NCBI RefSeq assembly: GCF_030408395.1
Contig: NZ_CP046980.1
Location: 2,356,001 to 2,420,000 of the forward strand
DNA from: Corynebacterium aquatimens
Lineage (GTDB): Bacteria > Actinomycetota > Actinomycetes > Mycobacteriales > Mycobacteriaceae
Reading direction: 5' to 3'
Length of the DNA stretch: 64,000 bases
Shown piece after piece: positions 2,056-62,564 of the stretch. The number at the start of each line of letters is the position of its first letter. Position 1 is the stretch's first letter. The notes beneath the pieces are model-generated. The model made no database searches, was not told the origin of the DNA, and saw nothing but the letters and a program-made list of their open reading frames with translations. The position numbers were made by a program, and so were the translations under genes.

Positions 2056-2056
2056 C

Positions 2057-2142
2057 TATACTTCGATGATCCATAAGGAACCCCGCAACCTTCTACCCTG
2101 CGGAAACCTTATTAGAAAAATCGCATACTGCATCGAAGTATA
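2057..2142. repeat. Palindromic element family A, copy 1 (86 bp)
   Basis: Terminal inverted repeats TATACTTCGATG and CATCGAAGTATA flank 62 bp with the core CCTGCGGAAACC. The same ends and core recur at 8357-8442, 40291-40386 and 41312-41397. This copy lies between the methyltransferase stop and the pck terminator, with no gene attached. It looks like a non-autonomous (MITE- or REPIN-like) element. Confidence 0.85.
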
Positions 2143-2153
2143 CTTTCTCGACC

Positions 2154-5095: not shown

Positions 5096-7383
5096 TGTTT
5101 TACCGCTGGGGCCGTTTCGCCTACCGCCACCGAAAAATCATCCCGGTGGCGGTCGTCGCGTTAATCCTGCTCATGCAGGTTCTTTTCGGCTCCCAGTTGG
5201 CTAACCGGCTTTCCCAAGAAGGCTGGGAGGACCCGCGGGCGGATTCCACGATCGGCGCCCAGATCGAACAAGACACCTTCGGCCGCGACAACACCGGCGA
5301 CGTGATCCTCATCGGCGCAACCAAAGACCAGGGCCAGGCGTTACGCGAGCAGTTCCCACAGCAGATCGAATTCATCCAGCCCGCGCAAGGCTTCGTCACC
5401 ATCGGTCTCGCCGGCGACGGTGAACAGACCCTCAAGGACTACCGCGCAATCCAGCCTGCCTTGGAGGAACTTCGCGACACATCGGGCGTGAAGATCGCCG
5501 GCGCCACCGCCATCGCCGACGAACTGGACCGCGGCATGGCCGACGACATCGCCCGCGCCGAAAAGATCGGCCTGGTCTTCGTGGCCATCATCCTGCTCAT
5601 CGTCTTCGGCGGCGTCGTCGCGGCCGGCATGCCCCTGATCGTGGGCATCTTGTCCATCATCGGATCACTGTCCGTCCTGGCGATCCTGGCCCAATTCCAG
5701 CAGGTCAACGTCTTCTCCCAGTCCATCATCACCCTGCTCGGCCTCGGCCTGGCAATCGACTACGGGCTGTTTATGGTGTCACGCTTCCGTGAGGAGCTCT
5801 CTCGCATACGCTCGCTCGCTCCTCACGAGAGGGCTGACATTCGCTCGCTCGCTCCTCACGAGGGGGACGACATTCGCTCGCTCGCTCCTCACGAGGGGGA
5901 TCCCGCCGAGCGCGAACTCAGCAGCGACGACATCGAGGAAGCCGTCGCCGAAACCACCGCCACCGCCGGCGAGACCGTGATCTTCTCCGCCCTCATGATC
6001 GGCGTGGCGCTATCGGGGTTGCTCATGTTCCCGCAGGCGTTCTTAAAGTCGGTTGCCTACGGCGCGATCTCCGCTGTGGTCTTCGCGGCGATCATATCCG
6101 TCACGGTGCTGCCGTCGATCTTCGGCCTTCTGGGCCCGAACATCGACAAGTTCTCCATCCGCCGCGTCGGCGAACCCAGCCGCTTCTGGGCACAAATCCC
6201 CGCCTGGGCGATGAAGAACTCCAAACTCACTATCGTCACCGTCGGCGGCGCACTAGTGCTCCTCACCGTGCCGATCGCCGGCATCACCTTCGGCGGCATC
6301 AACGAGTCCTACCTTCCGCCAAGCAACGCCGTGCGCCAGGCCCAAGACCAGTTCAACGCAGACTACCCGCAGTACCGCACCGACCCGATCAAGCTGGTCA
6401 TCGAGGGCGCAGACGACGCTCAGCTCGGCCAGATCGTCATGCAGACCCGCCAAGTCACCGGGCTCGCGTCCCCGCTCGAGCCCTCGCAAGCCACCAAGGA
6501 CGGCATCAACGTTCTCTCCGGGACGTTAGAGGACCGGAATGGTGGGGAGGCCGTCGTTAAGCAATTGCGCGCGATTGATGCGCCGGAAGGCGTCGAGCTG
6601 TACGTGGCCGGCACCCCCGCGATGGAGGTCGAGTCGATCGAGGCGCTGCTTGAGCGCCTGCCGTGGATGGCGCTGTACATGATTGTGGCGACGTTCATCC
6701 TCATGGCCATCGTGTTCCGCTCCGCGATCCTGCCCGCGAAGGCCGTCATCATGAACGCGCTGGGCATCGGCGCGACGCTGGGCTTCCTCACGCTGGTCTT
6801 TGTCAACGGCGTGGGCAGCGGCGTGTTCAACTTCACGCCTGGGCCGTTGATGAGCCCCGTGCTGGTGCTCATCATCGCGATTCTGTATGGCCTATCCACT
6901 GACTACGAGGTCTTCTTGGTCTCGCGCATGGTGGAGGCCCGCCGCAAGGGTGCGTCGACGGACCGCGCAATTATCGACGGCACCTCCCATACCGGCTCGA
7001 TCATCACCGCTGCCGCCGCCATCATGATCGTGGTTGCCGCGGCGTTTGCCATGAGCGACATCGTGATGATGAAGTACATCTCCTTCGGGTTGATCTTCTC
7101 ACTGGCGCTCGATGCGACACTGATCCGCTTGGCTCTGGTACCTGCGGTGATGCACGAACTGCGCGAGGATAACTGGTGGGCGCCGCGGTGGATGCGGAGG
7201 GCTCCAGCTGCTCCAGCTGCTCCTCAGCGTGCTCTGCCCTCCCCTGCGCAGCCCGAGACCGCCATTGACAACACCGTTCTGACCCCGCAGCACGCCCGCT
7301 CTGGCGTGAGCGTGGAAGAGAACTCCCAGCTCATTCCGTTCGATGAGCTGATGAAGAGGCTCAACGGCCCCGATGAACGCTAG
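5095..7383 (+). CDS. cmpL1: MmpL3-type RND lipid transporter (CmpL1-like)
   Basis: The 762-residue membrane protein has the RND/MmpL layout: TM1, a periplasmic domain, five TMs, and then the same again. Both halves carry the proton-relay Asp-Tyr pair (GLAIDYGLFMVSRFREE and GLSTDYEVFLVSRMVEA). Its position between trmB and the accD3-pks13-fadD32 cluster matches C. glutamicum CmpL1, the trehalose monomycolate flippase. It starts at GTG overlapping the trmB stop, with GGAGAG upstream. One oddity is a triple 11-residue in-frame repeat (IRSLAPHE..., residues 238-270) in the cytoplasmic loop after TM4. The C-terminal tail is Ala/Pro-rich. Confidence 0.92.
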   Translation: MFYRWGRFAYRHRKIIPVAVVALILLMQVLFGSQLANRLSQEGWEDPRADSTIGAQIEQDTFGRDNTGDVILIGATKDQGQALREQFPQQIEFIQPAQGFVTIGLAGDGEQTLKDYRAIQPALEELRDTSGVKIAGATAIADELDRGMADDIARAEKIGLVFVAIILLIVFGGVVAAGMPLIVGILSIIGSLSVLAILAQFQQVNVFSQSIITLLGLGLAIDYGLFMVSRFREELSRIRSLAPHERADIRSLAPHEGDDIRSLAPHEGDPAERELSSDDIEEAVAETTATAGETVIFSALMIGVALSGLLMFPQAFLKSVAYGAISAVVFAAIISVTVLPSIFGLLGPNIDKFSIRRVGEPSRFWAQIPAWAMKNSKLTIVTVGGALVLLTVPIAGITFGGINESYLPPSNAVRQAQDQFNADYPQYRTDPIKLVIEGADDAQLGQIVMQTRQVTGLASPLEPSQATKDGINVLSGTLEDRNGGEAVVKQLRAIDAPEGVELYVAGTPAMEVESIEALLERLPWMALYMIVATFILMAIVFRSAILPAKAVIMNALGIGATLGFLTLVFVNGVGSGVFNFTPGPLMSPVLVLIIAILYGLSTDYEVFLVSRMVEARRKGASTDRAIIDGTSHTGSIITAAAAIMIVVAAAFAMSDIVMMKYISFGLIFSLALDATLIRLALVPAVMHELREDNWWAPRWMRRAPAAPAAPQRALPSPAQPETAIDNTVLTPQHARSGVSVEENSQLIPFDELMKRLNGPDER
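5806..5904 (+). repeat. Three tandem 33-bp repeats inside cmpL1
   Basis: Units start at 5806, 5839 and 5872. Each contains CGCTCGCTCGCTCCTCACGA and encodes IRSLAPHE plus three variable residues. The length is a multiple of three, so copy-number change would keep the frame. The repeat falls just after the first Asp-Tyr relay helix, in a loop predicted to face the cytoplasm. Confidence 0.95.
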
Positions 7384-8356
7384 CGCCGTCCGGAAATGGG
7401 TGAGCTGGCTCGCGCCGGTTGCGCTGCTCATCGTGCTGCTTATCCTGTTCCGCGAGCAGCTTCCATTCCTTGGTCAGGCGTTTGACGCTCTTCGTCATGC
7501 CGAACCGCTTCCGGTAGGGCTTACGGTGGTGAGCGCGTTTTTAGCCATCGTGGCCATGGCGACGGTCATGCGTCTCTTGCTGCGCGGCACGCGCGCGACG
7601 CTGTGGTCCTGCACGGGCCTCACGCTGGCCTCTAACGCCTGGTCAACGACCATTCCCGGCGGCCCCGCCTTCTCCGCGTGGATGACCTACCGCGTGCAGC
7701 GCACCTGGGGCGCGTCTAACGGCCTGTGCGGATGGTTCTTTGTCATTAGCGGCGCCTTATCCACGGCATGGATGGTCCTCCTCGGGATCGCCGCCGTTGT
7801 CTTTCTTGGTGCCGAACTGTCATGGATCGCGCTCGTGGCTACGCTGTTGATCAGCGTAATTGTCATCGCGGGGCTGTTCTGGGCGACGTTGAACCCGGAC
7901 GTTGTGAAACGGTGGCTGCGGTTCGTTCCGGTCAAGCTGCGCACCAAGCTGGAATCCGTGGTCGACCAAGTCGCTGCGATCCGGATGAGTCCCGGGCAGT
8001 TCGCTGTCACCGCACTGTTTTCGCTGCTCAACCGGCTCTGTGACGTGATCACGCTCTACCTCAGCGTCTGGGCCGTCACCGGCACCGCACCTGGCACAAC
8101 CGCTGGGCTCAACGAAACCACTATTCAGGGAATCACCTTGGCATTCATCATGACCAAGCTCGCCGGAATGGCCCAAGTCACCCCCGGCGGGCTGGGCACT
8201 GTGGAGCCGGTCGCTACCGCCGCCCTGGTCGCCTCGGGGCTGACCCTGGTGTCGGCCACAGCCGCGACACTGATCTACCGGATCGTGTCATTCGCCCTGA
8301 TCACCGCGATCGGCTGGATCATCTACTTCATTGCGTACCGTAGCCGACCGAATTAG
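7373..8356 (+). CDS. Integral membrane protein, UPF0104/YbhN-like (lysylphosphatidylglycerol synthase TM family)
   Basis: The 327-residue protein has seven to eight hydrophobic helices and the family signature of small residues and prolines around TWST.IPGGPAFSAW.TYR and GGLGTVE. Members resemble the flippase domain of MprF and are often annotated UPF0104. The ATG lies 11 bases inside the end of cmpL1, so the two are translationally coupled. That points to a role with the mycolate transporter, as for the membrane genes beside mmpL3 in mycobacteria. The exact function is unknown. The stop codon directly abuts element A copy 2. Confidence 0.75.
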   Translation: MNASAVRKWVSWLAPVALLIVLLILFREQLPFLGQAFDALRHAEPLPVGLTVVSAFLAIVAMATVMRLLLRGTRATLWSCTGLTLASNAWSTTIPGGPAFSAWMTYRVQRTWGASNGLCGWFFVISGALSTAWMVLLGIAAVVFLGAELSWIALVATLLISVIVIAGLFWATLNPDVVKRWLRFVPVKLRTKLESVVDQVAAIRMSPGQFAVTALFSLLNRLCDVITLYLSVWAVTGTAPGTTAGLNETTIQGITLAFIMTKLAGMAQVTPGGLGTVEPVATAALVASGLTLVSATAATLIYRIVSFALITAIGWIIYFIAYRSRPN

Positions 8357-8442
8357 TATACTTCGATGTTTTTGACATAATCTGCAACACCGTGACCTGC
8401 GCTTTTACCATCGCCGACCGGGCGGTTTTCCATCGAAGTATA
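8357..8442. repeat. Palindromic element family A, copy 2 (86 bp)
   Basis: The element has 12-bp terminal inverted repeats TATACTTCGATG / CATCGAAGTATA and the core GACCTGCGCTTTTACC beginning 37 bases from the left end. It begins at the base after the TAG of the preceding gene and ends 28 bases before the DUF3054 gene. No gene is attached. Confidence 0.85.
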
Positions 8443-8470
8443 CTGCGACCCCGTGCGCTAGGGTGAAGGC

Positions 8471-40213: not shown

Positions 40214-40290
40214 GCAGATATTAAACCGTGTTTTATCTGTGACCGTGGCGAAAGCCCGGCTGTTGAAATCCCCACCCTCACCCGCCGCAG

Positions 40291-40386
40291 TATACTTCGA
40301 TAATTCATAAGCTATTGTGCATATGGTTTCCGCATTTCAGGGCTGTGCGGTTGAGGGCAGAAATCTCCCAAAATCATCGAAGTATA
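40291..40386. repeat. Palindromic element family A, copy 3 (96 bp)
   Basis: Ends TATACTTCGAT and ATCGAAGTATA flank a core (ATGCGGAAACC, here on the minus strand). Orientation is reversed relative to copies 1, 2 and 4, and one arm is ten bases longer. It lies 132 bp upstream of the nuclease-like gene at 40519, with copy 4 on the other side. Confidence 0.85.
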
Positions 40387-40518
40387 CCGATTCGATTATC
40401 CACAGGTCTCCCAAATTCCACAGGGCTCCCAGCGCCTGAAAACCAGCGTGTCCACATTCCTGCCAAGATGTTCAACACGCGGACCGCAGGGGGCAGACCG
40501 CTTTTAACAGGGGGAACC

Positions 40519-41301
40519 ATGGACCAAGAACAGGAATTACAATCCATCATCGAGTCACTGAATAGCTGCAGGTCAGCTGTTGTAACCGGACCAGCTGCGG
40601 CAAAGCTCATGGGTGTAGCCACCCTCAGCTGGGCCACAACCACTGATCTTTTGCTCCGTGACGGTGCGAAACCACCGGTCAAATCCAAACGGGGTGGACG
40701 GATCGTCTACCGGAGCAGTTATTTAAGTTCAAGCGACGTTCGCATTCTGGATGGGATCGCCATCGTGAGACCAATCCGCATGCTCTTCGACATCTTTCGC
40801 TACTACGGCCGGCTGGAATGCCTCGTTGCCATCGAATCGCTCCGTAATCAATTGCCCAGAACCTTCACGATCCCGTACCTTTTAGAATCATCAGAGCACT
40901 TATCGGGCTCGCGCGGGATCCGAGAGTTCCGCGAGCTGATCGCGTTTTCAGTGGATACGTCGCAAAGCCCACTGGAAACCGTTGCCCGCGACATCCTTCT
41001 GCGCATCCCGGAGGTGACCAGCCTACGTGCCCAAGTGCGCATTTCCTACCTGGGTGAATACGGTGAACCGCGAACCGCCTTCGTCGATTTTTTGATCAAC
41101 GAGTTCGTCGCCGTCGAACTTGACGGCCGCGTAAAGTACAACGGCACGTACGGCGATCCGCTCACAATCATGATCGATGAGCGCTTCCGAGAGAAGAAGA
41201 TCCAGCAGCAAGGAAAGCTTGTGCTTCGCTTCGGCTGGCGCGAAGTCATGAATGGGGAATTCGAGGCCGAGATCCGCGCGTTCCTTAGGGCTTTCAACTA
41301 A
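40519..41301 (+). CDS. AbiEi/DUF559-like protein with Vsr-type nuclease core, bracketed by family A elements
   Basis: The 260-residue protein has an N-terminal half (AVVTGPAAAKLMGV, then GIAIVRPIRMLFDIFRYYG) resembling actinobacterial proteins annotated as AbiEi antitoxin-like. Its C-terminal half has a PD-(D/E)xK/Vsr-like pattern: TAFVDFLINEFVAVELDGRVKY, then a basic FREKKIQQQGKLVLRFGW. It is clearly homologous to the protein at 60885-61784 over its whole length. ATG 40519 has an AGGGGG site; the frame is open further up, into element A3. Element A4 begins 10 bases after the stop. No AbiEii-type toxin gene is adjacent, so a classical type IV toxin-antitoxin role is not supported. Confidence 0.75.
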   Translation: MDQEQELQSIIESLNSCRSAVVTGPAAAKLMGVATLSWATTTDLLLRDGAKPPVKSKRGGRIVYRSSYLSSSDVRILDGIAIVRPIRMLFDIFRYYGRLECLVAIESLRNQLPRTFTIPYLLESSEHLSGSRGIREFRELIAFSVDTSQSPLETVARDILLRIPEVTSLRAQVRISYLGEYGEPRTAFVDFLINEFVAVELDGRVKYNGTYGDPLTIMIDERFREKKIQQQGKLVLRFGWREVMNGEFEAEIRAFLRAFN

Positions 41302-41311
41302 GCGGAGTCAG

Positions 41312-41397
41312 TATACTTCGATGAATTTCCGGGATTTGGTCAGCGCTATGACCTGCGCAAACCATATTAGGTTTTGTGCATATCCAATCGAAGTATA
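41312..41397. repeat. Palindromic element family A, copy 4 (86 bp)
   Basis: Ends TATACTTCGATG and ATCGAAGTATA flank the core GACCTGCGCAAACC, 38 bases from the left end. It starts 10 bases after the stop of the nuclease-like gene and pairs with copy 3 upstream to bracket it. Confidence 0.87.
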
Positions 41398-41403
41398 CCG
41401 GCT

Positions 41404-49612: not shown

Positions 49613-50098
49613 CAGCACGCTTATCGACGATCCCCTCCCAACTGCAGCCCGTCTGGTCAGTCATCTGACAAGAAGCTCTCTTCGGATCTGCTCATGTCCT
49701 CCTCCAAGGACAAGGGCAGCACCGCCATGGACTGGCTGAGGTTCGCGGGCCGGGCGCACAGTGGTCCGCGCGGTTACGAATCAAACGACACCCCCACTTT
49801 CCCGTTGTTCATCCGGGAGGGTGGGGGTGTTGTTGTCTTGGGTCGTTCTTGCATAAAACTTACGTCTCAGTTGTTTATAAGTCACGGGGGTAAGTAGTAG
49901 GGGTAGTGATTTTAGCTTTCTAATCAATCATTAAGGTTAGCTCGTGCTAAGTTCTATCTTCGAGAGCAACAGTTTTCACAGATGAACCGCATTATGTGAG
50001 GTGAAAAGGGAAAATGTCGCTCCAAAAGGACTAGGAAGCGATTCTTAACCTTTTTCTACTCCCCACATACTGACTTAAGTTTCCTGAAAGGTAACCCA
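49613..50098. other. 486-bp intergenic region before the surface-protein gene
   Basis: The region holds a CGTCGATAAGC motif (minus orientation, 49619-49629), a terminator (49785-49840), and then a 250-bp AT-rich stretch without a convincing gene. In that stretch a dyad TTAGC-tcgt-GCTAA (49937-49950) sits in a TTAAGGTTAGC context slightly reminiscent of iron-regulator boxes. A CTGAAAGG ribosome site precedes ATG 50099. A short frame at 49694-49897 runs through the terminator and is not credible. Confidence 0.6.
49785..49840 (+). terminator. Terminator after the LCP gene
   Basis: The stem ACGACACCCCCAC...CCCG pairs with CGGG...GTGGGGGTGTTGT around a loop containing TTCATC. The same stem-loop plan (CACCCCCA...TTCATCCGGGAG...TGGGGGTG) recurs at 54781-54823, on the far side of the surface-protein gene. 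Confidence 0.8.
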
Positions 50099-53000
50099 AT
50101 GTCCAAGATGAACACCGCACGCCGCCGCGGAACCACCATTGCGGCAGCCGCACTGTCCCTGGCGCTCGTCGCCCCAGTCCTCCAGCCGATCGCTGCACCG
50201 GTGGCACTGCCCGCCGCGCAGGCTGCAGAAGCGACCACGACCGCCACAAGCGCCTCGAATCTGCAGAGCCGGCCTACACAGGTCCTCGAGGCGGACGCGT
50301 ACGCCAACGGCTACGTCAAGAGCGCGACGGATCTGACCAACGCAAAGCACACGGTTTCCGGTCGCGCGTACGTCTACCGCACCACTTCGGACGCCCAGGG
50401 CTACGACCCTTCGCTTTCCACCACCGGCGAAAGCCGCACCCCCGTGCCAGAAGGCACCGTGGTGAAACTCCAGTGGATGGACGACGACGGCGCGGTTTCG
50501 CCGATCTACACCGCGAAAACCACGAACACCAAGGGCCGCGACTCCGACCCGAAGAACGTGACCTCAAACTTCAGCCCATCGGGCCCTGGTGCGTACGCAT
50601 TTGATCTCCGCGAGGGGTTCGTCGACGCTAACGGCCGTAAGCACATCTACAACGCCACGGGCGGCCAGATGGTGAAGATCTGGATTGATCCGTACAAGGA
50701 TCCGATGACCGGAAACATGCAAAACATGCTGCGTGTTGCGCCGGGTGGTACTCCGGGTACCTTCGGTGCCGCCGGTGGTCTGCTCTGGAACAACCTCGGC
50801 TCGTTCCCGTTCGCCGGTCAGAACCTTCAGAGGACTGCAATTTGGATGAACGAGGTCCCCGAACCGCGTAACGACGGTTCGAACTACATGACCAAGCCTC
50901 GCAAACAGTGGATCGAGGACAATGCTGGCCCGCTTAAGCGTCTTGCCGGCGGTGAGATTTCCAGCCCGAAGTACCAGACGCCAAAGCAGCCGATCGAATA
51001 CACCGTAAGCGGTCAGGTCTGGCGCGAAATCGACTTCGGCCAAGGCGTGAGCAAGAGCGCCGTGGGCAACGAAGTCACGCAGACCTTCGACCCCTACGAT
51101 GCGAAGATCGCAGACGGCAAGTACTCCGTCGTGCTCACCATGCTCACCGAGGAAGCTGCGCAGTCCTACAAGGTTGCGATGAACGGCACCAACCCGGCAA
51201 AGCGTGCCGAGGCGACCAAGAAGTGGCTCGAAGACTACCGCGCCAAGGGCCAGGACCCAATCGTCGCAACGGTTAAGGCACCCGTGATCGGTAGCCACTA
51301 CACCGCCCGCTTCCCCAAGGAAGCCTTCGACAAGACCAACGCGAATTCCATCTACGGCTTCTTGGTCGATGAGAACGAGCAGATTGTGACTTCGTACTCC
51401 ACCTACAACAATGCTGAGTACGCATACCCACGTCGCAACCGCATGCTGAACCCGAAGAACGGTAGCCTCCAGGCCCCGACCGACATCACGTCGCTGCGTG
51501 AGCCGTTCCTGCAGGGCAACAACCGCTGGATCAACGTCAACTTCGCTGCACCGATCACCAATGAGGCACGTATCGACATTCTTGAGTACGACGTCTTCAA
51601 CAACCCGGCGCCGCACGGCACTCCACTTGAGGTACGCGTTGACGGTGAACTCTCCAACATGCGTAACCGCATTGTGTGGACGAAGAATAACCAACGCAGT
51701 GATGACGACGCGACGAAGATCGAGGACACCGCCCTGCAGGTCTGTGAAATTGAGACCGTCGAAGATGCGAAGAAGTGCACCTTCACCGCGTGGGACCTTG
51801 ATGGGGATAAGAAGGTCAACGACGGTGACGTTCTTACTGCGACGCTGTACTTCGACAACTACCCGATTTCGCGCGACTCCGTGGTCGTCCTGGGCGACAA
51901 GCAGAACTCCCAGTACCAGCCGAGCTACCCGCACACTCAGATCCCGAAGGGCGAGTCGCGAGAGATCAAGCCAACCTGGACCGATGGTAAGGGTAACCCC
52001 ATCAATCCTCCGGTTGACTCCGAGGGGAACGGCCCGACATTCGAGCTCGAGCCCGGCGTGACCGGTATCCCGGAGTCCATCACTGTGGCACCTGACGGCA
52101 CCGTCGTCGTGACAGGTGAGACACCGGTTGGCAAGTACCAGATCCCCGTCGTTGTGACCTACCCGGATGGTTCACGCGAGATCGTTACCGCCAAGGTCGA
52201 CGTGGTCAACGGCAGCGACGCGACGAACACCACCCCGCGTTGGGACAACACCTCCACCCCGGCCGGCGAGCCGGTGAAGGTCCCGAACACCGGTGACCCA
52301 ATCCCTGCAGGCAGCACGGTCGAGGTAACCTCCGACAAGAACTGGACCGTTACCACTACCCCTGAAGGCGTCGTCACAGTCACTCCGCCGGCTGATGCAA
52401 AGACCGGCGACAAGTCCACGATCACGGTCACCGTGACGTACCCTGATGGTTCCGTCGACGTTGAGAAGTTCACCGTCACCGTGGACAATAAGGACGGTGG
52501 CGACAACGCTGCGACCACCACCCCGAACTGGGACAATCAGGAGACCACGCCGGGTGAACCGGTGAAGGTTCCGAACACCGGTGACCCGCTGCCCGAGGGC
52601 ACGAAGGTCACCCCGACCATCCCCAACAACCCGGGTGGTTGGACCGTCGATGTAGACGGCGACGGCACCATTACCGTGACGCCGCCGAAGGACTCCCAGG
52701 TCGGCGACAAGATCGAGGTCGAGGTCGACGTAACGTACCCGGACGGTTCCAAGGACAAGGAAACCTTCACGGTCACCGTCGTCGATGTTGTGGATGTCTA
52801 CACGGTTGGGTACCCGAACACCAAGGTCAAGGTCGGCGAATCCGAGACCGCATCCCCGGTGTTCAGCACCAACCCGAAAGAGAAGAACTTCACCGAGGTT
52901 CCCGGCGCCAAGAACGACCACGACGGCCTGTGGTCCGTCGGTAAGCCTGGCGTCCGCGACGGAAAAGTGAAGGCTACCGCACCGAACCAGGACAAGCTGG

Positions 53001-54736
53001 CGAAGGCGTTCACGGACACGCGCGACCGAATCGTTAAGGGCCAGTGCGAACCGGGCAAGGTTGCACCGGAGGACATCAAGAGGATCATCGAGGAGATCAA
53101 GAAGCTCTTCTCTGCTGGTACCGCTGTGGATGTCACGTTCGAAGCGGGTGCAACTCCATCGAAGAACGTACCGGTTCGTTTCACGCTGGTGGATGCTAAC
53201 GGCAAGCCGTTGGCTGACAGTGATGACTGGGATGGCGACGGTAAGAGCAACGAGGATGAAATCCGCGACTGCGAAAACCCGCTCAACCCAAGTGACCAGA
53301 AGGCACCGGACTGGAACGACACCTCAACCACCCCGGGCCAGCCTGTCGTCGTGGAAAACACCGGTGGCCCGGTCAAGCCGGGCACCACGGTGGAGATCTC
53401 TGATCCCACCAAGGGCAAGGTCGAAATCGACCCGACCACCGGCGACATCACCTTCGTTCCAAGCGACGACTTGAAGCCGGGCGACAAGGTCACCGTTGTG
53501 GTCAAGGATCCTGAGGGCAACAAGATCGATGAATTCACCATCGAGATCGTTGCTGAGAACCCGGACTGGAACGACGCGGAAACCCAGCCGAACAAGCCGG
53601 TAGAGGTCAAGAATGAAGGCGGCCCAGTTCGCCCTGGCACCACGGTCAAGGTCACGGATCCGACGAAGGGCACTGCGACGATCGATCCGAACAGCGGTGA
53701 CATCACCTTCACTCCGAGCCCGAACATGGAACCAGATGACGTCGCGTTCATCGTCGTCACCGGACCAGATGACAAGGAGATTGACACCTTCCACGTCACG
53801 GTCGTGGTCAGCGAGCCGTACTGGAACGACGCTTCCACCCCGGCGGACAAGCCGGTCACCATCCCGAACGAGGGTGGTCCGACCAAGCCTGGCACCACCG
53901 TCACCGTTGAAGGCGGCGAGGGCAAGGGCACCGCGAAAATCGATGACAACGGCAACATCACGTTCACCCCGGGTGACAACGCGAAGCCGGGCGACAAGAT
54001 TACGGTGACGGTGAAGGACCCGTCGGGCAACATCATCGACACGATCACCGTCACGGTGAAGGACCCGACCAAGGTAGTCGAGCCGCCGATTTACAACTCG
54101 GGTACGGATACCACCACGGTGACTACGACGGTGGAGAAGTGGACAGGCCTGTCCAGCCACCTGCCGGACCGCGATCACTGCATCGCTACGCTGGCAAGCT
54201 TCGGTATTCCGCTGGCACTGCTGATTCCGGTTGGTATCGTGGCTGCCGCTGGCCTACCGGGTCTGCAGCCGATGATGGACCAGGTCAGCGTCCAGATCAA
54301 GCAGGCCAACACGAACCTGCAGCAGTCACTGGGTGTCTTCAACCCAGAGGTCGCCCGCGTGGCAGCGCAGATCGACGCGCAGCTCGCACCGGTCGGTCTG
54401 AACCTCGCGCAGGCGGCGATCGGCCTGGCACTGCTGGCAGCCGGTATTGCGGCGATCGTCTCGGTCTACAAGGCCTGTGTTGACCCGAACGGTGTCCAGG
54501 TCCTGTCCTCGACTGGCAGCAGCGGACGCGGTGCAGGCAAGGGTTCGGACAAGAAGAAGTCCACGTCCCCGACCACCACGTCGACGACCAGCGCAGCGAC
54601 TGAGCCCAAGCCGTCTGAGCCCACGTCGACTAAGTCCAAGCCGTCTGAGCCCACGACGACTGAGTCCACGTCGACTGAGCCCACGTCGACTGAGTCCACC
54701 ACCACGGCCCCGACCACCACGCCGGAGTCGAACTAG
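50099..54736 (+). CDS. Large repeat-rich surface protein (YPDG/Rib-like repeats)
   Basis: The 1545-residue secreted protein begins with a signal peptide (ALSLALVAPVLQPIAAPVALPAAQAAEA). A 600-residue globular N region follows, then two Rib-like YPDG repeats (about 705-905, each ending VTYPDGS...FTVTV). A linker holds a calcium-loop-like DSDDWDGDGKSNEDE (about 1040-1055), followed by three further repeats (about 1068-1327, each with WND and GGPxxPGTTV). Two hydrophobic helices (about 1364-1386 and 1440-1459) precede a Thr/Ser/Pro/Glu tail. There is no LPxTG motif. It is probably an adhesin or surface-layer-type protein held by the C-terminal helices. Repeats invite copy-number change. Confidence 0.88.
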   Translation: MSKMNTARRRGTTIAAAALSLALVAPVLQPIAAPVALPAAQAAEATTTATSASNLQSRPTQVLEADAYANGYVKSATDLTNAKHTVSGRAYVYRTTSDAQGYDPSLSTTGESRTPVPEGTVVKLQWMDDDGAVSPIYTAKTTNTKGRDSDPKNVTSNFSPSGPGAYAFDLREGFVDANGRKHIYNATGGQMVKIWIDPYKDPMTGNMQNMLRVAPGGTPGTFGAAGGLLWNNLGSFPFAGQNLQRTAIWMNEVPEPRNDGSNYMTKPRKQWIEDNAGPLKRLAGGEISSPKYQTPKQPIEYTVSGQVWREIDFGQGVSKSAVGNEVTQTFDPYDAKIADGKYSVVLTMLTEEAAQSYKVAMNGTNPAKRAEATKKWLEDYRAKGQDPIVATVKAPVIGSHYTARFPKEAFDKTNANSIYGFLVDENEQIVTSYSTYNNAEYAYPRRNRMLNPKNGSLQAPTDITSLREPFLQGNNRWINVNFAAPITNEARIDILEYDVFNNPAPHGTPLEVRVDGELSNMRNRIVWTKNNQRSDDDATKIEDTALQVCEIETVEDAKKCTFTAWDLDGDKKVNDGDVLTATLYFDNYPISRDSVVVLGDKQNSQYQPSYPHTQIPKGESREIKPTWTDGKGNPINPPVDSEGNGPTFELEPGVTGIPESITVAPDGTVVVTGETPVGKYQIPVVVTYPDGSREIVTAKVDVVNGSDATNTTPRWDNTSTPAGEPVKVPNTGDPIPAGSTVEVTSDKNWTVTTTPEGVVTVTPPADAKTGDKSTITVTVTYPDGSVDVEKFTVTVDNKDGGDNAATTTPNWDNQETTPGEPVKVPNTGDPLPEGTKVTPTIPNNPGGWTVDVDGDGTITVTPPKDSQVGDKIEVEVDVTYPDGSKDKETFTVTVVDVVDVYTVGYPNTKVKVGESETASPVFSTNPKEKNFTEVPGAKNDHDGLWSVGKPGVRDGKVKATAPNQDKLAKAFTDTRDRIVKGQCEPGKVAPEDIKRIIEEIKKLFSAGTAVDVTFEAGATPSKNVPVRFTLVDANGKPLADSDDWDGDGKSNEDEIRDCENPLNPSDQKAPDWNDTSTTPGQPVVVENTGGPVKPGTTVEISDPTKGKVEIDPTTGDITFVPSDDLKPGDKVTVVVKDPEGNKIDEFTIEIVAENPDWNDAETQPNKPVEVKNEGGPVRPGTTVKVTDPTKGTATIDPNSGDITFTPSPNMEPDDVAFIVVTGPDDKEIDTFHVTVVVSEPYWNDASTPADKPVTIPNEGGPTKPGTTVTVEGGEGKGTAKIDDNGNITFTPGDNAKPGDKITVTVKDPSGNIIDTITVTVKDPTKVVEPPIYNSGTDTTTVTTTVEKWTGLSSHLPDRDHCIATLASFGIPLALLIPVGIVAAAGLPGLQPMMDQVSVQIKQANTNLQQSLGVFNPEVARVAAQIDAQLAPVGLNLAQAAIGLALLAAGIAAIVSVYKACVDPNGVQVLSSTGSSGRGAGKGSDKKKSTSPTTTSTTSAATEPKPSEPTSTKSKPSEPTTTESTSTEPTSTESTTTAPTTTPESN

Positions 54737-54780: not shown

Positions 54781-54823
54781 GGCACCCCCATCTCCTGTCG
54801 TTCATCCGGGAGATGGGGGTGCC
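54781..54823. terminator. Bidirectional terminator between surface protein and permease
   Basis: The stem GGCACCCCCATCTCC / GGAGATGGGGGTGCC is 15 bp with a 13-base loop containing GTTCATCC. It is followed by CTTT and separates convergent genes. It is a close relative of the stem-loop at 49785-49840. Confidence 0.88.
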
Positions 54824-58125: not shown

Positions 58126-58321
58126 CCCACCAACGTTAGGCAGCCAGCCTCGGGATCGCTCTGTTCGCAGGCGTATATAACGTGTTGTTCACCGAAAATT
58201 GACCGAGGCGTTCAAGCGAGTTTGGTTTTTCTGTGGCATCGTTCACACTACCGCGCCGAAGTGGCGCCATCTGATCCCGACTGCCCCCTACGCACAAGGG
58301 TTTTTTGTCACAATAGGGGGC

Positions 58322-60208
58322 ATGAAATTTCCGTCGCTAAGCATGCTCGGCTCTGTGGCGCTCCACGCACCGCTGATTGCGGCGGAGGTGCTCACGGACC
58401 TCACGCCGGGCCTGCGGCTGGCGGGCGTGCGCCGGCTGCCGTCGAATATGGCGGCGGGAATCGTCGGCGCGGAAGCCGCAGCATGGAGCGCCGTCTCCCC
58501 CTCGCTGCTGCCGCACCCGTGGTGGGTCACCGCAGCTAACGTGGGCATTTGCCAAACCGCGGGGCACACCGTGGGCACCACTGTCGCGAACGTCGTCGAC
58601 GCCGTGCAAGGCCAGCTCGGGGTGCGGCCGCCATCCAAGTGGCGGCACAGGCTGTACATGGGCACGCAGATCACCATGAGCTTGGCCACCGTGGGCGCCT
58701 ACGTCAGCGCCGCTCGCCGCAGGCCAGAGCAAGCCCAGCTTATCGACGACTCCGAGCGCGCCTCCGGCCTCACCTACCTCGGCGGAATCGCGGCTGGTTC
58801 CATGGGGTACGGCGCACTGCTGCTGATCGGGGAGGGCATCCAGATTTTCGCCGACACCTTTAATAAGGAACTGCGCCGGTGGATGCCGTCCTACGCCTCG
58901 TGGCCACTCGTCGTGGCGGGGCTGGGCGCGCTTGGCTTCCTCCTCGGCGACAAGGTGGTCGTGCGGCGAATCCTCACCAATGCGTATAAGAACGCCGAGG
59001 AACTGAACAAGGAATTCCTGCCCGGCGCGCCACGCCCCGTCGAACCGCAGCGTTCTGGGTCACACGCGTCGTTGGAGCGCTGGCGTTTCCTCGGCCGCCA
59101 GGGCCGCGCCGTCGTCGCCGGCGGCCCGCGCGCCCGCGACATCGCCGCCGTCATGGGCCCGGCCCCGTCCCCTGGCGGCGCTGCCGGCGCCTCCTCTGCT
59201 CCATCCCTCTTTGATGGCGCTGCCATCAAAGAGCCCATCCGCGTCTTCATCGGCCTGAAAGACCGCACGCCGGAGGAGCAGGCCGAAAAGGTTCTGCGCG
59301 AACTTGACCGCACCGATGCCTGGTCGCGCAAAGCGATCGCGGTGTTGTCGTCGGCTGGCACGGGATGGATCAGTGACTATCACACCTCTGGCCTGGAGTT
59401 TCTCTTGCGCGGCGACACCGCTATCGCGGCGATGCAGTACTCCTTCATGCCGTCGGCGTTTTCCTATGCTTCCGACCGCGAAGCCCCGACGCGTTCGGCA
59501 TCGGTGCTGCTCGCGGCGATCCAGGAGCGCCTTGACGCGATGCCCGCGGACAAGCGTCCCCGGCTTTACGTCGGCGGCGAATCCCTGGGCGCGTACGGCA
59601 TCTCCGACTCCTTCGATTCCCCGAAGGCAATGCTCGAGCGTATCGACGGCGCCGTCTTCACCGGCACCCCCGGCTTCACCCAGGCCCATTCGATTTTGAC
59701 CCAATCCCGCGACAAGGGCAGCCCGGAGCGCGTCCCCGTTGTCGACGGCGGGCGCCACGTCCGATTCGCCGCCCATGAGGACCACCTGCGCCACACTTTC
59801 GACGGCTCAGACTACGCCAACGACTGGGAGTTCCCCCGCGTCGTGTTCGCCCAACACGCCTCTGACCCGGTGGTGTGGTGGGACTGGCCCCTGTTGTTCC
59901 GCCGCCCCGACTGGCTGCGCGAACCCGGTTCCCGTCGTGTCCCCGCCCCGGACGCCCAGCACCTTGACGTCCTGCATTCCATGTATTGGATGCCCTTTGT
60001 CACCTGGTGGCAGGTGGGCGTCGACCAGCTGTCCTCACTCGAGCCCGAGGGCGGCCACGGCCACCAGTACTGGCGCGAAACCGTCGCCTACTGGAACGCA
60101 GTCCTGGACGCCGGCGCCACCGAGGAACAGATCGACGCCATCTACGAGTGGATCCACGCCGACTCCACCAAAATCCGCGCGACCAACATCACCGACCCCA
60201 GCCGCTAA
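58322..60208 (+). CDS. Membrane-anchored alpha/beta hydrolase (Abhydrolase_9-like)
   Basis: The 628-residue protein's N half has four or five hydrophobic helices (for example LMGLGALGFLLGDKVVVRR-like segments). The C half is an alpha/beta-hydrolase domain with the nucleophile in YVGGESLGAYG and late Asp/His candidates (HASDPVVWWDWPLL and HGHQYW). It matches the pfam10081 architecture found in mycolate bacteria, where the reaction is unknown. ATG 58322 follows GGGGG and is chosen over an in-frame start at 58199, which lacks a signal. It contains the CTTATCGACG motif at 58738. Confidence 0.8.
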   Translation: MKFPSLSMLGSVALHAPLIAAEVLTDLTPGLRLAGVRRLPSNMAAGIVGAEAAAWSAVSPSLLPHPWWVTAANVGICQTAGHTVGTTVANVVDAVQGQLGVRPPSKWRHRLYMGTQITMSLATVGAYVSAARRRPEQAQLIDDSERASGLTYLGGIAAGSMGYGALLLIGEGIQIFADTFNKELRRWMPSYASWPLVVAGLGALGFLLGDKVVVRRILTNAYKNAEELNKEFLPGAPRPVEPQRSGSHASLERWRFLGRQGRAVVAGGPRARDIAAVMGPAPSPGGAAGASSAPSLFDGAAIKEPIRVFIGLKDRTPEEQAEKVLRELDRTDAWSRKAIAVLSSAGTGWISDYHTSGLEFLLRGDTAIAAMQYSFMPSAFSYASDREAPTRSASVLLAAIQERLDAMPADKRPRLYVGGESLGAYGISDSFDSPKAMLERIDGAVFTGTPGFTQAHSILTQSRDKGSPERVPVVDGGRHVRFAAHEDHLRHTFDGSDYANDWEFPRVVFAQHASDPVVWWDWPLLFRRPDWLREPGSRRVPAPDAQHLDVLHSMYWMPFVTWWQVGVDQLSSLEPEGGHGHQYWRETVAYWNAVLDAGATEEQIDAIYEWIHADSTKIRATNITDPSR

Positions 60209-60367: not shown

Positions 60368-60452
60368 TGAGTGGTTCGGCCACTCAGCGTTACTTTCCAA
60401 GGAAAACCGCAGGTCGCGCACCGCGAGTTTCCTTGAGTGGTTCGGCCACTCA
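60368..60452. repeat. Palindromic element family B, copy 1 (85 bp)
   Basis: Two dyads TGAGTGG-ttcgg-CCACTCA lie 66 bases apart (starts 60368 and 60434). The second extends to a 13-bp perfect arm TTTCCTTGAGTGG (60428-60458). Between them, on the minus strand, is the core GACCTGCGGTTTTCC, 37 bases from one end. Confidence 0.88.
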
Positions 60453-60549
60453 AGGAAACGGGCAAACACGGCATGCGCGCGGCCTGTTGCGGCGCGACCC
60501 TCCGCGCCCCCGTTTCGTCTCCAACGAGTCGATCACACGCCCCATTCCT

Positions 60550-60634
60550 TGAGTGGTTCGGCCACTCAGCGTTATTTTCCATGGAAAACCGCAGGTCGCG
60601 CACCGCGAAATTCCTTGAGTGGTTCGGCCACTCA
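60550..60634. repeat. Palindromic element family B, copy 2 (85 bp)
   Basis: It has the same plan as copy 1, with dyads at 60550 and 60616, again 66 bases apart, and the same core. It lies within the second unit of the 183-bp duplication and differs from copy 1 at only a few positions. Confidence 0.88.
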
Positions 60635-60884
60635 AGGAAACGTGCAATCACGGCATGCGGCGCGGCTGGATGTGGCACGTTCGGATGCGGCGCGGCTCGG
60701 TGCGTTGCGACCTGGTACATCGCGGCCCGATGTTGCGGCCTGCTGCGTCGCGGCCTGATGCGTCGCGGCCGAGGCAATCACCGCCTCAGACCTGCATGCA
60801 CGCAGGATGTCCGAACGCTGTTTGGGGGTGGCTCAACCGCTTTCTCCGGAAAGCATGGAACCTTGGCCCAGTTTTCTGAGTCCA

Positions 60885-61784
60885 ATGAATATGGGTTTGA
60901 GAAAAAATGATTATGGGGCGTTGCTGGGTGGGGTCGTCGATAAGCGTGATCCTGCGTTTAGAGCATTGATGAAGAAGGGCATGAAACCTGGGACCTTTGT
61001 GACGGTAGCGGGCCCGTACGTGTGCGAGCATGCAGCGTACAAGGCGCTTCGACCGTATGAAAAGCACTGGTTGCGCGCGTTTCTTCGGGGGAAGCTGGCC
61101 AAGAAGTCAATCGTCATGGGTAAATCGGCGGCTCGGTTGCTTGGGATGCCGCTGATTTTGCGGTCAGAGGAGATGGTCGAGTTTGTCACGAGGGCGACGG
61201 GCCATCCGCAGCCGCCGCGGGGGTGTGTGTACCGACGGGCGTCCATCGAGGACCATGAGATCACGACGGTCCACGGTATTGCGGTGACGACCCCCGCGCG
61301 GACGGCAATCGACATTGCCAGATACCACGGCTTCGCCGACGGCTTGGTGGCGATGGACGCGTTCCTGCGTGAGTTCGGCACTCGCGAGGAGCTTGAGGCC
61401 ACGCTGGCTTCAATGCCACGGTTCAAGAACAAAAGGCTCGCCCGCAGCTGCATCGCCTTCGCGGACGCGGATGCGCAGTCAGCGGTAGAAAGTTTCGCGC
61501 GCGCAGCGTTGATTGAGGCCGGGATCACCGGCGTTAGCCTGCAGTTTCCTGTCGAGATTTACTTTGTTGACCTGTGCATTGACGGCTGGTTGTTGATCGA
61601 AATCGACGGCGCCGTCAAATACGAGGAGGACACCCGTGAGGCATTGCTGCGGGAGCGCCAGCGGGAGAAGAGGATTCTCAACCTGGGGTATCGGATGCTT
61701 CGTTTTTCGGCGAAGGAGATCATTGCACATCCCCAGGGGTTTGTCCGGGAGGTTCTCAAGGCCCTGGGGTCCCGGCACACGTAG
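60885..61784 (+). CDS. AbiEi/DUF559-like protein with Vsr-type nuclease core, bracketed by family B elements
   Basis: The product is about 299 residues. The middle region has the actinobacterial AbiEi-like pattern (SIVMGKSAARLLGMPL, then HGIAVTTPARTAIDIARYHGFADGLVAMDAFLR). The C-terminal part is a nuclease-like core: YFVDLCIDGWLLIEIDGAVKYEE, then RERQREKRILNLGYRMLRFSAKEI (about 226-275). It aligns with the 40519-41301 protein block for block. Start is uncertain: ATG 60885, 60891 or 60855. Elements B1 and B2 lie upstream and B3 begins 18 bases after the stop. No toxin partner gene is adjacent. Confidence 0.72.
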   Translation: MNMGLRKNDYGALLGGVVDKRDPAFRALMKKGMKPGTFVTVAGPYVCEHAAYKALRPYEKHWLRAFLRGKLAKKSIVMGKSAARLLGMPLILRSEEMVEFVTRATGHPQPPRGCVYRRASIEDHEITTVHGIAVTTPARTAIDIARYHGFADGLVAMDAFLREFGTREELEATLASMPRFKNKRLARSCIAFADADAQSAVESFARAALIEAGITGVSLQFPVEIYFVDLCIDGWLLIEIDGAVKYEEDTREALLRERQREKRILNLGYRMLRFSAKEIIAHPQGFVREVLKALGSRHT

Positions 61785-61801
61785 CTGAGGCTGGGTTTCG
61801 C

Positions 61802-61886
61802 TGAGTGGCCGCACCACTCAAGGTTGGTTGTCGCGGAAACCCCCAGGTCGCGGCTCGCTGAAATCCTTGAGTGGTGCGGCCACTCA
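61802..61886. repeat. Palindromic element family B, copy 3 (85 bp, diverged)
   Basis: Dyads TGAGTGG-ccgca-CCACTCA (61802) and TGAGTGG-tgcgg-CCACTCA (61868) are again exactly 66 bases apart. The inside has diverged but keeps GGAAACC...CAGGTCGCG. It lies just downstream of the nuclease-like gene and upstream of the msrA stop. Confidence 0.85.
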
Positions 61887-61910: not shown

Positions 61911-62564
61911 CTAAATCCCGCAGGCGACCCCGGTGGAGTGGTGCGGGCAGTACCCGTTAGGCACCTTGTGTAGGTACTGCTGGTGTTCGTCCTCGGCTAG
62001 GTAGTAGGTGACGCCGTCGCGCTCGACGCTGGCGACTTCGGTGGTGATCTGCCCGAACCCGGCGCTGCTCAGCGACTGTTGGTACTCAGCGATCCAGCCG
62101 CGGATCTGCTCCGCCTCGGCTTCGGTGTCGGTGTAGAACGCGGAGCGGTACTGCGTGCCCACGTCGTTTCCCTGCCGGAAGCCCTGCGTCGGGTCGTGCG
62201 CCTCCAGCGCGGCGCGCACGAGATCCTTCAGGCCAACCCGCGCGGGGTCGTAGACCACTTCGACCAGTTCCACGTGGTTCGTCTGCCCCGAGCACACTTC
62301 GCGGTACGTCGGGTTGGGCGTCACCCCGCCGCCGTAGCCCACCGACGTGGCCTCCACACCGGGGGTTTCCCAGAACATTTTCTCCGCCCCCCAGAAGCAT
62401 CCCAGCCCCACGAGCAGGCGTTTGTGCCCCTCGTTCCACGGCCCCGTAATCGGCGTCCCCAGCACAGCGTGGGGCGCGGGGTGCGGCAGAATCGGCTCCG
62501 GGCGGCCCGGCAGGGCGTCATGCTTATCGACGAGTTCAGGACTACGACCAAACGGGAAGAACAT
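61911..62564 (-). CDS. msrA: Peptide-methionine (S)-S-oxide reductase
   Basis: The 217-residue MsrA has the catalytic GLGCFWGAEKMFWETPGVEATSVGYGGG, the conserved YDPARVGLKDLVRAALEAHDPTQG and GTQYRSAFY, and C-terminal HQQYLHKVPNGYCPHHSTGVAC supplying resolving cysteines. It repairs oxidised methionine in the cytosol. It is divergent from sodA, so two oxidative-defence genes share a 130-bp regulatory region. Codons near the start contain the CTTATCGACG motif. Confidence 0.95.
   Translation of the reverse strand: MFFPFGRSPELVDKHDALPGRPEPILPHPAPHAVLGTPITGPWNEGHKRLLVGLGCFWGAEKMFWETPGVEATSVGYGGGVTPNPTYREVCSGQTNHVELVEVVYDPARVGLKDLVRAALEAHDPTQGFRQGNDVGTQYRSAFYTDTEAEAEQIRGWIAEYQQSLSSAGFGQITTEVASVERDGVTYYLAEDEHQQYLHKVPNGYCPHHSTGVACGI

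What the first reader, a model, noticed from the sequence alone, without database searches (positions are those of the whole stretch)
60368..61886. Second homologous nuclease-like gene bracketed by a different palindromic element family
The 299-residue homologue at 60885-61784 has two B elements upstream and one downstream. Each B element is two TGAGTGG-N5-CCACTCA dyads with starts exactly 66 bases apart in all three copies, although loops and interiors have diverged. Conserved spacing despite sequence drift argues for function rather than recent copying. Two independent examples of gene plus matched element in one 64-kb window make chance association unlikely.
Basis: partly seen in the sequence, partly recalled or inferred. 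Interest (0 to 1): 0.88.

Follow-up and report, generated by a model that had tools for sequence, protein, structure and literature searches.

The report
Nucleases partnered with private palindromic repeats
In this bacterium and its actinobacterial relatives, genes of one DNA-cutting-enzyme family tend to sit beside their own private families of short palindromic repeats, some of them scattered round the genome, which looks like an unrecognised kind of miniature mobile DNA served by a nuclease instead of a transposase.

Summary
Confirmed, and larger than reported. The gene at 60885-61784 encodes an AbiEi-like domain fused to a Vsr/DUF559-type PD-(D/E)XK nuclease. Its three B elements belong to a dispersed family of 14 complete pairs, all with the 66-bp period; the pair pattern is absent from 60 other genomes. 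Six further paralogues here each lie beside other repeats. Of 98 homologous loci in 55 genomes, 50 carry a matching repeat upstream and downstream; of the other 48, 29 have a paired inverted element on at least one side. Controls: msrA flanks 0 of 30; paired elements 8 of 88. Ends mostly differ between loci; the paired architecture recurs. The module is absent from the orthologous site in relatives.

Best reading (inferred): the nuclease recognises the ends of its own family and drives their spread or persistence, working like REPIN-RAYT 'REPtrons' without being one, as the enzyme is no HuH transposase. Binding, cutting and movement are untested, and no target-site duplication was found. Ten library searches showed no such association in print; most subscription journals are not held.

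The parts
60368..60452 (+). B element 1: dyads 60368-60386 and 60434-60452, core CGCAGGTCGCG between; ssDNA folding z -6.93
60550..60634 (+). B element 2: dyads 60550-60568 and 60616-60634; ssDNA folding z -6.13
60885..61784 (+). Nuclease B: 299-aa AbiEi-like domain (residues 12-194) + Vsr/DUF559 PD-(D/E)XK domain (197-299); D229, E239, D241, K245 invariant in 25 aligned sequences
61802..61886 (+). B element 3, 17 nt after the stop codon; ssDNA folding z -6.95
40290..40387 (+). A element upstream of nuclease A (98 bp, the longest of nine extracted pairs)
40519..41301 (+). Nuclease A, 260-aa paralogue; lacks the N-terminal segment of B that is modelled as a winged helix; no Pfam match
41311..41398 (+). 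A element downstream of nuclease A
8356..8443 (+). Solo A element, absent in G020 and G021; the TAG stop of the upstream ORF (8354-8356) straddles its left edge
2056..2143 (+). Solo A element, left end with one change (CTATACTTCGATG)
58199..60208 (+). Flanking gene (Abhydrolase_9); its orthologue lies next to msrA in 9 of 14 relatives compared
61911..62564 (-). Flanking gene msrA (PMSR), convergent with the nuclease

Best explanation
A REPIN-like system run by a nuclease. SHOWN: a family of AbiEi-like/PD-(D/E)XK (Vsr-type, DUF559/MTES_1575) proteins, most of whose genes examined lie beside short elements (mostly 60-105 bp where a whole element aligned) made of two end units, mostly inverted to each other, several with two motif copies per end at a 14-bp period. 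Ends mostly differ from locus to locus. Dispersed solo copies were seen for five of the seven families of this genome and for two families of relatives. INFERRED: the protein binds the ends of its own family, as AbiEi proteins bind paired inverted repeats, and the Vsr-type domain nicks or cuts there, probably on cruciform or hairpin DNA exposed during replication. Repair then copies or inserts the ~90-bp unit elsewhere, so elements spread in trans while the gene, bracketed by two copies, moves or is inherited with them. The chemistry of insertion is unknown.
Against: No movement was observed and no same-species strains were available. Binding and cutting were not tested. No target-site duplication in 24 solo copies. 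41 of 69 loci lack matched flanks on both sides, and 19 of 48 unmatched loci show no inverted pair at >=26. 15 of 47 elements show neither inverted nor direct pairing at >=20. One G020 element folds no better than shuffles (z -0.06). One protein pair with ratio 0.78 (L124/L126) has unlike elements; the Mantel r is small and partly reflects shared ancestry of loci. Only 1 of 25 homologues matches AbiEi_1 by sequence. Nuclease A lacks the winged-helix segment, so that segment cannot be the general reader of DNA. L070 and L128 in one genome share an element type. No universal core. Two tries for further clean empty sites failed.
Confidence: 0.6

Rival explanations
1. Operator model: the elements are binding sites by which the AbiEi-like protein regulates itself (and perhaps other genes or chromosome structure); the dispersed copies arose by some past unrelated process and are kept as sites.
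For: AbiEi and Rv2827c autoregulate by binding paired inverted repeats in their promoters (PMC7319586, passages). Many elements lie upstream of the gene.
Against: Copies also lie downstream of the stop codon and between convergent genes (9 of 17 loci, by eye on mechanical ORFs), where no promoter is expected. An operator model does not explain why two dispersed families tested are found only in the genome holding their nuclease or why the nuclease residues stay invariant.
Confidence: 0.15
2. Selfish nuclease model: the enzyme cuts chromosomes or invading DNA, and the elements are marks that protect, attract or repair (homing-like persistence or addiction); their spread is a by-product.
For: Catalytic domain close to the homing endonuclease I-Bth0305I. 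AbiEi models of the defence library match (best E 1.8e-11). Nearest other protein only about 43% identical, i.e. fast turnover.
Against: The gene lies between genes, not inside a conserved gene. No match in 50,697 phage records. No DUF1814 toxin among the two genes adjacent to B. Ends are paired and spaced, more than a single recognition site needs.
Confidence: 0.13
3. Passenger model: an ordinary transposase moves the elements as MITE-like ends, and the nuclease gene is cargo between two copies.
For: A gene between two similar ends resembles a composite element. I looked only at loci that hold this protein, so other cargo between such ends would not have been seen.
Against: No target-site duplication. 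Protein and element similarity are correlated. The families tested genome by genome are private to the genome with the nuclease.
Confidence: 0.07
4. Integron-like model: elements are attC-like recombination sites and the nuclease gene a cassette.
For: Length, paired inverted ends and variable interior recall attC sites (from memory).
Against: Ends differ between families and many copies are solo, not cassette arrays. No integrase was looked for in the genome.
Confidence: 0.02

Closest known systems
REPIN / RAYT (TnpA-REP) 'REPtrons' (PMC3116915, PMC8266576, PMC3733652)
   Same: Gene for a DNA-processing enzyme flanked by short palindromic repeats; dispersed doublets able to fold into hairpins; tandem clusters; several distinct single-copy enzymes per genome each with its own repeat class; co-divergence of enzyme and repeat.
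   Different: Enzyme is an AbiEi-like + Vsr/DUF559 PD-(D/E)XK nuclease, not an HuH tyrosine transposase; no GTAG tag within 10 nt of the ends of the seven window elements; seen here in the genus, order and class of this genome.
AbiE type IV toxin-antitoxin antitoxins (AbiEi, Rv2827c)
   Different: Carries a nuclease domain; no DUF1814 toxin among the two genes adjacent to B; candidate sites are dispersed, not only in the promoter.
EDxHD homing endonucleases (I-Bth0305I) and Vsr
   Different: Gene lies between genes and is accompanied by a multicopy element family; no methylase partner was looked for.
TIR-flanked RAYT-like 'TIRtrons' (PMC3733652, passages)
   Same: Gene flanked by inverted repeats some of which also form dispersed families.
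   Different: Tyrosine transposase instead of a PD-(D/E)XK nuclease.

Membership tests
REPIN-RAYT (REPtron) | HuH tyrosine transposase (IS200/IS605-like) | tested here: not met
   Pfam gives DUF559, MTES_1575 and AbiEi_1 only at E <= 0.01; fold of the C-terminal domain is PD-(D/E)XK
REPIN-RAYT (REPtron) | Repeat doublets, inverted, able to form hairpins | tested here: met
   25 of 47 elements at >=24 against 1 of 2122 mismatched; B and A fold with z -3.4 to -6.95. B units are self-palindromic and in direct order; 15 of 47 elements fail the pairing test; one G020 element has z -0.06
REPIN-RAYT (REPtron) | Gene flanked by its own repeat class, which is also dispersed | tested here: met
   flanking: 50 of 98 loci; dispersal tested for some families only
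REPIN-RAYT (REPtron) | GTAG tetranucleotide at element end (one REP group) | tested here: not met
   none within 10 nt of the ends of 7 window elements; other families not tested
AbiE type IV toxin-antitoxin | Adjacent DUF1814 nucleotidyltransferase toxin | tested here: not met
   neighbours of B are Abhydrolase_9 and PMSR; other loci not scanned
AbiE type IV toxin-antitoxin | AbiEi fold | tested here: met
Homing endonuclease (EDxHD) | Cuts an allelic site that lacks its gene; often inside an intron or intein | tested here: inconclusive
   gene lies between genes and its site is empty in relatives; cutting cannot be tested
DDE-type MITE/IS | Target-site duplication | tested here: not met
   24 solo copies: identical stretches of 5 or more in 2 of 24, about 11% in mismatched flanks
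Vsr-like PD-(D/E)XK nuclease | Catalytic fold and conserved acidic residues | tested here: met

The most novel reading that the evidence does not exclude
A new class of bacterial miniature mobile DNA: element populations replicated or inserted by AbiEi-Vsr-type nucleases rather than transposases, widespread in Actinomycetes, with each nuclease co-evolving with its own ends, i.e. an independent invention of the REPIN-RAYT lifestyle.
Probability: 0.5. Interest if true: 0.93.

Novelty: categorically new. Interest (0 to 1): 0.88.

Why it matters
It offers a concrete partner and a testable target for a very common unexplained protein family: relatives matched in 100 of 148 sampled genomes of the class at E <= 1e-20. 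It would explain dispersed palindromic repeats in these genomes that match no Rfam family in the window. If a nuclease without transposase chemistry can spread 90-bp elements, that is a new route for mobile DNA. Because families come with their own enzyme, dozens of natural protein-site pairs are available to decode how the protein reads DNA.

Tried and rejected
A universal core motif: ACCTGC occurs in 6 of 47 elements against 5.4 expected, so rejected across taxa; the most enriched 6-mer was CGCAAA, 9 of 47 against 1.0. A core is nevertheless shared by several families inside this genome. Target-site duplication: none beyond control. Insertion into terminator hairpins (complementary flanks): A 11.1 against 11.0 in controls, B 10.8 against 11.4, rejected. 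Known RNA family: 0 Rfam matches in the window. Defence-system filing: only AbiEi models of PADLOC match; NCBIfam none. Phage origin: no match; plasmids: 9 records, 26-33% identity, none covering 80%. Further clean empty sites at smc and menB failed because the neighbouring genes differ. A scan with the gene beside the window's solo A element found no relative.

Controls and dropped rows. An early msrA control gave three high scores (L132, L134, L150) because those loci are cut by contig ends; with coordinates corrected it gave 0 of 30. In the same of 40 window ORFs reached >=36: nuclease B (62) and a 1546-aa repeat protein (47); nuclease A scored 30 there because its ORF was opened inside the element. 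The 69 loci are all 65 places plus four own paralogues; two of them carry a stop inside (L087, L101). The 29 class loci are the ones handed out, one or none per genome, of matches in 100 genomes; the weakest passes (L174 39, L191 43) are GC-rich and may be background, and the highest mismatched scores there come from loci that resemble each other. Three near-duplicate elements (L194, L098, L197) were dropped, not. The control is 29 of 30 msrA loci (L130 dropped, it holds the nuclease) and 59 of the 80 menB loci (L294-L353 without L325); most menB loci are from other genera. One search compared 15 of the 30 msrA loci (own plus 14 relatives).

Literature: ten searches. One search listed 14 papers with DUF559; I saw only the listing, and no title or abstract start is about such repeats. 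AbiEi with DUF559: 0 papers. Seen of papers: PMC3116915 outline and Discussion; PMC7319586 passages; PMC8266576 outline and one section; PMC3733652 passages; the rest listings only. attC anatomy and general facts on homing endonucleases, Vsr and PD-(D/E)XK catalysis are recalled.

Full report
CHECK OF THE OBSERVATION. The window lies in a 2.52-Mb genome, G000, at 2356001-2420000. It is probably a Corynebacterium, because the closest named homologues are from that genus; the record itself is unnamed. The three B elements, the two dyads in each, the 66-bp spacing and the 299-aa ORF are as described. Ten matches with up to 3 mismatches compare with 2.39 expected by shuffling. The first homologue, at 40519-41301, is bracketed by a different element, GTATACTTCGAT...ATCGAAGTATAC.

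THE ELEMENTS ARE A GENOME-WIDE FAMILY. The exact B dyad occurs 30 times in this genome (reversed control 1). The paired form, with a gap of 40 to 60 allowed, occurs 14 times here, each time with period 66, and in none of 60 other genomes. The dyad arms are invariant by construction of the search; the core CAGGTC was not demanded and is present in 14 of 14, while much of the rest drifts. The two unpaired dyads, at 79557 and 641398, have a decayed partner by eye. The A motif gives 24 hits on both strands; nine pairs extracted are 87 to 98 bp long, six of them 88. In 9 of 17 solo-element loci the neighbours are convergent, judged by eye on mechanical ORFs.

PARALOGUES AND THEIR FAMILIES. The genome holds seven nuclease paralogues (one is split into two matches; no stop inside any). 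Repeats with different ends lie beside all seven, on both sides or one: L001=B, L006=A, L002, L003, L004, L005 and L007 (read by eye). Copies away from the nuclease were seen for A, B, the L003 family (four tandem copies near 1402 kb), the L004 family (L214) and the L005 family (L201, L212), i.e. 5 of 7; for L002 and L007 none was seen, and no search with their end motifs was run.

GENERALITY AND CONTROLS. I took 69 homologous loci: all 65 places of the 61-genome search at E <= 1e-20 and four more own paralogues. The best local alignment of 700 bp upstream against 700 bp downstream reached >=36 in 28 of 69, against 5 of 828 mismatched pairs from different genomes and 2 of 200 from the same genome. 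In 29 further loci handed out from a class-wide search it was 22 of 29; mismatched pairs gave 27 of 812, a higher background than in the genus. msrA loci gave 0 of 30. In all, 50 of 98 loci and 38 of 55 genomes have at least one matched pair. Of the 48 loci without a match, 29 have a paired inverted element at >=26 on at least one side, against 8 of 88 msrA/menB loci; of the 50 matched loci it is 34. Alignments show ends that differ from locus to locus, except between close relatives. Examples are GGTAACA-N7-GGTAACA (L111), GTGCAGACCT-N4-GTGCAGACCT (L078), AACCGGCTACC (L114) and CCAGCGAAT (L103), with inverted copies at the other end and a 14-bp period. The L111 pattern was found only in its own genome among 61, on two contigs.

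ARCHITECTURE AND CO-DIVERGENCE. The two halves of an element are complementary at >=24 in 25 of 47, against 1 of 2122 mismatched halves and 2 of 470 other segments; 15 of 47 show no pairing of either kind at >=20. As single DNA strands the three B elements fold with z -6.1 to -6.95, two A elements with -3.4 and -4.35, three of the L111 family with -5.5 to -7.3, two solo copies in G020 with -0.06 and -2.7, and two window controls with -0.5 and -0.3. Protein similarity and element similarity are correlated over 50 elements (Mantel r 0.15; 2 of 2000 permutations reach it). The nine most similar element pairs all come from protein pairs with score ratio above 0.5; one similar protein pair (0.78) has unlike elements. 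Shared ancestry of whole loci contributes to this.

PRESENCE AND ABSENCE. I compared the msrA loci of 14 relatives (of 29 fetched). The nuclease matches none; in 9 of 14 the hydrolase orthologue is the neighbour of msrA, in L131, L132, L133 and L136 almost touching it; in the other five (L134, L135, L140, L142, L144) something else lies there. Here 1702 bp with three B elements and the nuclease lie between the two genes. The solo A element at 8356 is absent in G020 and G021, where the upstream reading frame runs on; here its stop codon straddles the left edge of the element. In the close species pair G020/G021 the CCTAAACCCGGA family has solo copies whose surroundings do not match, but the two sites followed up gave no clean empty counterpart. 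No target-site duplication beyond control was found in 24 solo copies.

MECHANISM. Shown: association, private families where tested, recurrent architecture, invariant nuclease residues, presence/absence between species. Inferred: recognition of the ends, cutting there, and spread or maintenance of the elements through repair. AbiEi relatives bind paired inverted repeats (PMC7319586, passages), which makes recognition plausible. The anatomy parallels REPIN-RAYT as described in PMC3116915 (Discussion) and PMC8266576, down to several distinct single-copy enzymes per genome, tandem clusters and co-divergence. The enzyme is unrelated to HuH transposases, so I do not file it as a member.

NOVELTY. 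Ten searches of the held library (23, 24, 45, 46, 70, 75, 76, 77, 93, 102) showed no description of such an association; most subscription papers are not held. I rate the system as categorically new in its enzyme-element pairing while working like a known lifestyle; the mechanism claim stands at 0.6.

Noticed in passing
G000 genome: L201-L224; window 60403-60418, 60585-60600, 61837-61852, 8391-8406: Several families with different ends share one core, CGNGACCTGNGNNTTT (24 hits genome-wide, 0 for the reversed control). Core follows the host, ends follow the nuclease; unexplained.
   Followed up: partly
L202, L207 (TCCTGACGAT..TGACACC) and L203 (GATTCGCGAAATT): Solo elements with the shared core but end motifs that by eye match none of the seven nuclease families in this genome: possible orphan families.
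   Followed up: no
window 8354-8360: The stop codon of the upstream ORF straddles the left edge of a solo A element; G020 and G021 have a longer C-terminus there.
   Followed up: yes
L028:1420-2160 (G000 about 1402.2-1403.0 kb): Tandem array of period 213-216 bp made of an L003-family element next to half an A element.
   Followed up: no
window 5805-5903: Three tandem 33-bp repeats beginning CATACGCTCGCTCGCTCCTCACGAG or CATTCGCTCGCTCGCTCCTCACGAG.
   Followed up: no
window 49792-49826 and 54785-54819: Two similar 35-nt palindromes flank a 1546-aa repeat-protein ORF at 50099-54736, possibly terminators.
   Followed up: no
L003:1504-2475: One paralogue has a long Gly/Ser-rich insertion within its nuclease domain.
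   Followed up: no
L070 and L128 (G036, about 10 kb apart): Two different nuclease genes with the same element ends (GCAAATACCCAGCCCTGGAA) next to both, an exception to one family per nuclease.
   Followed up: no
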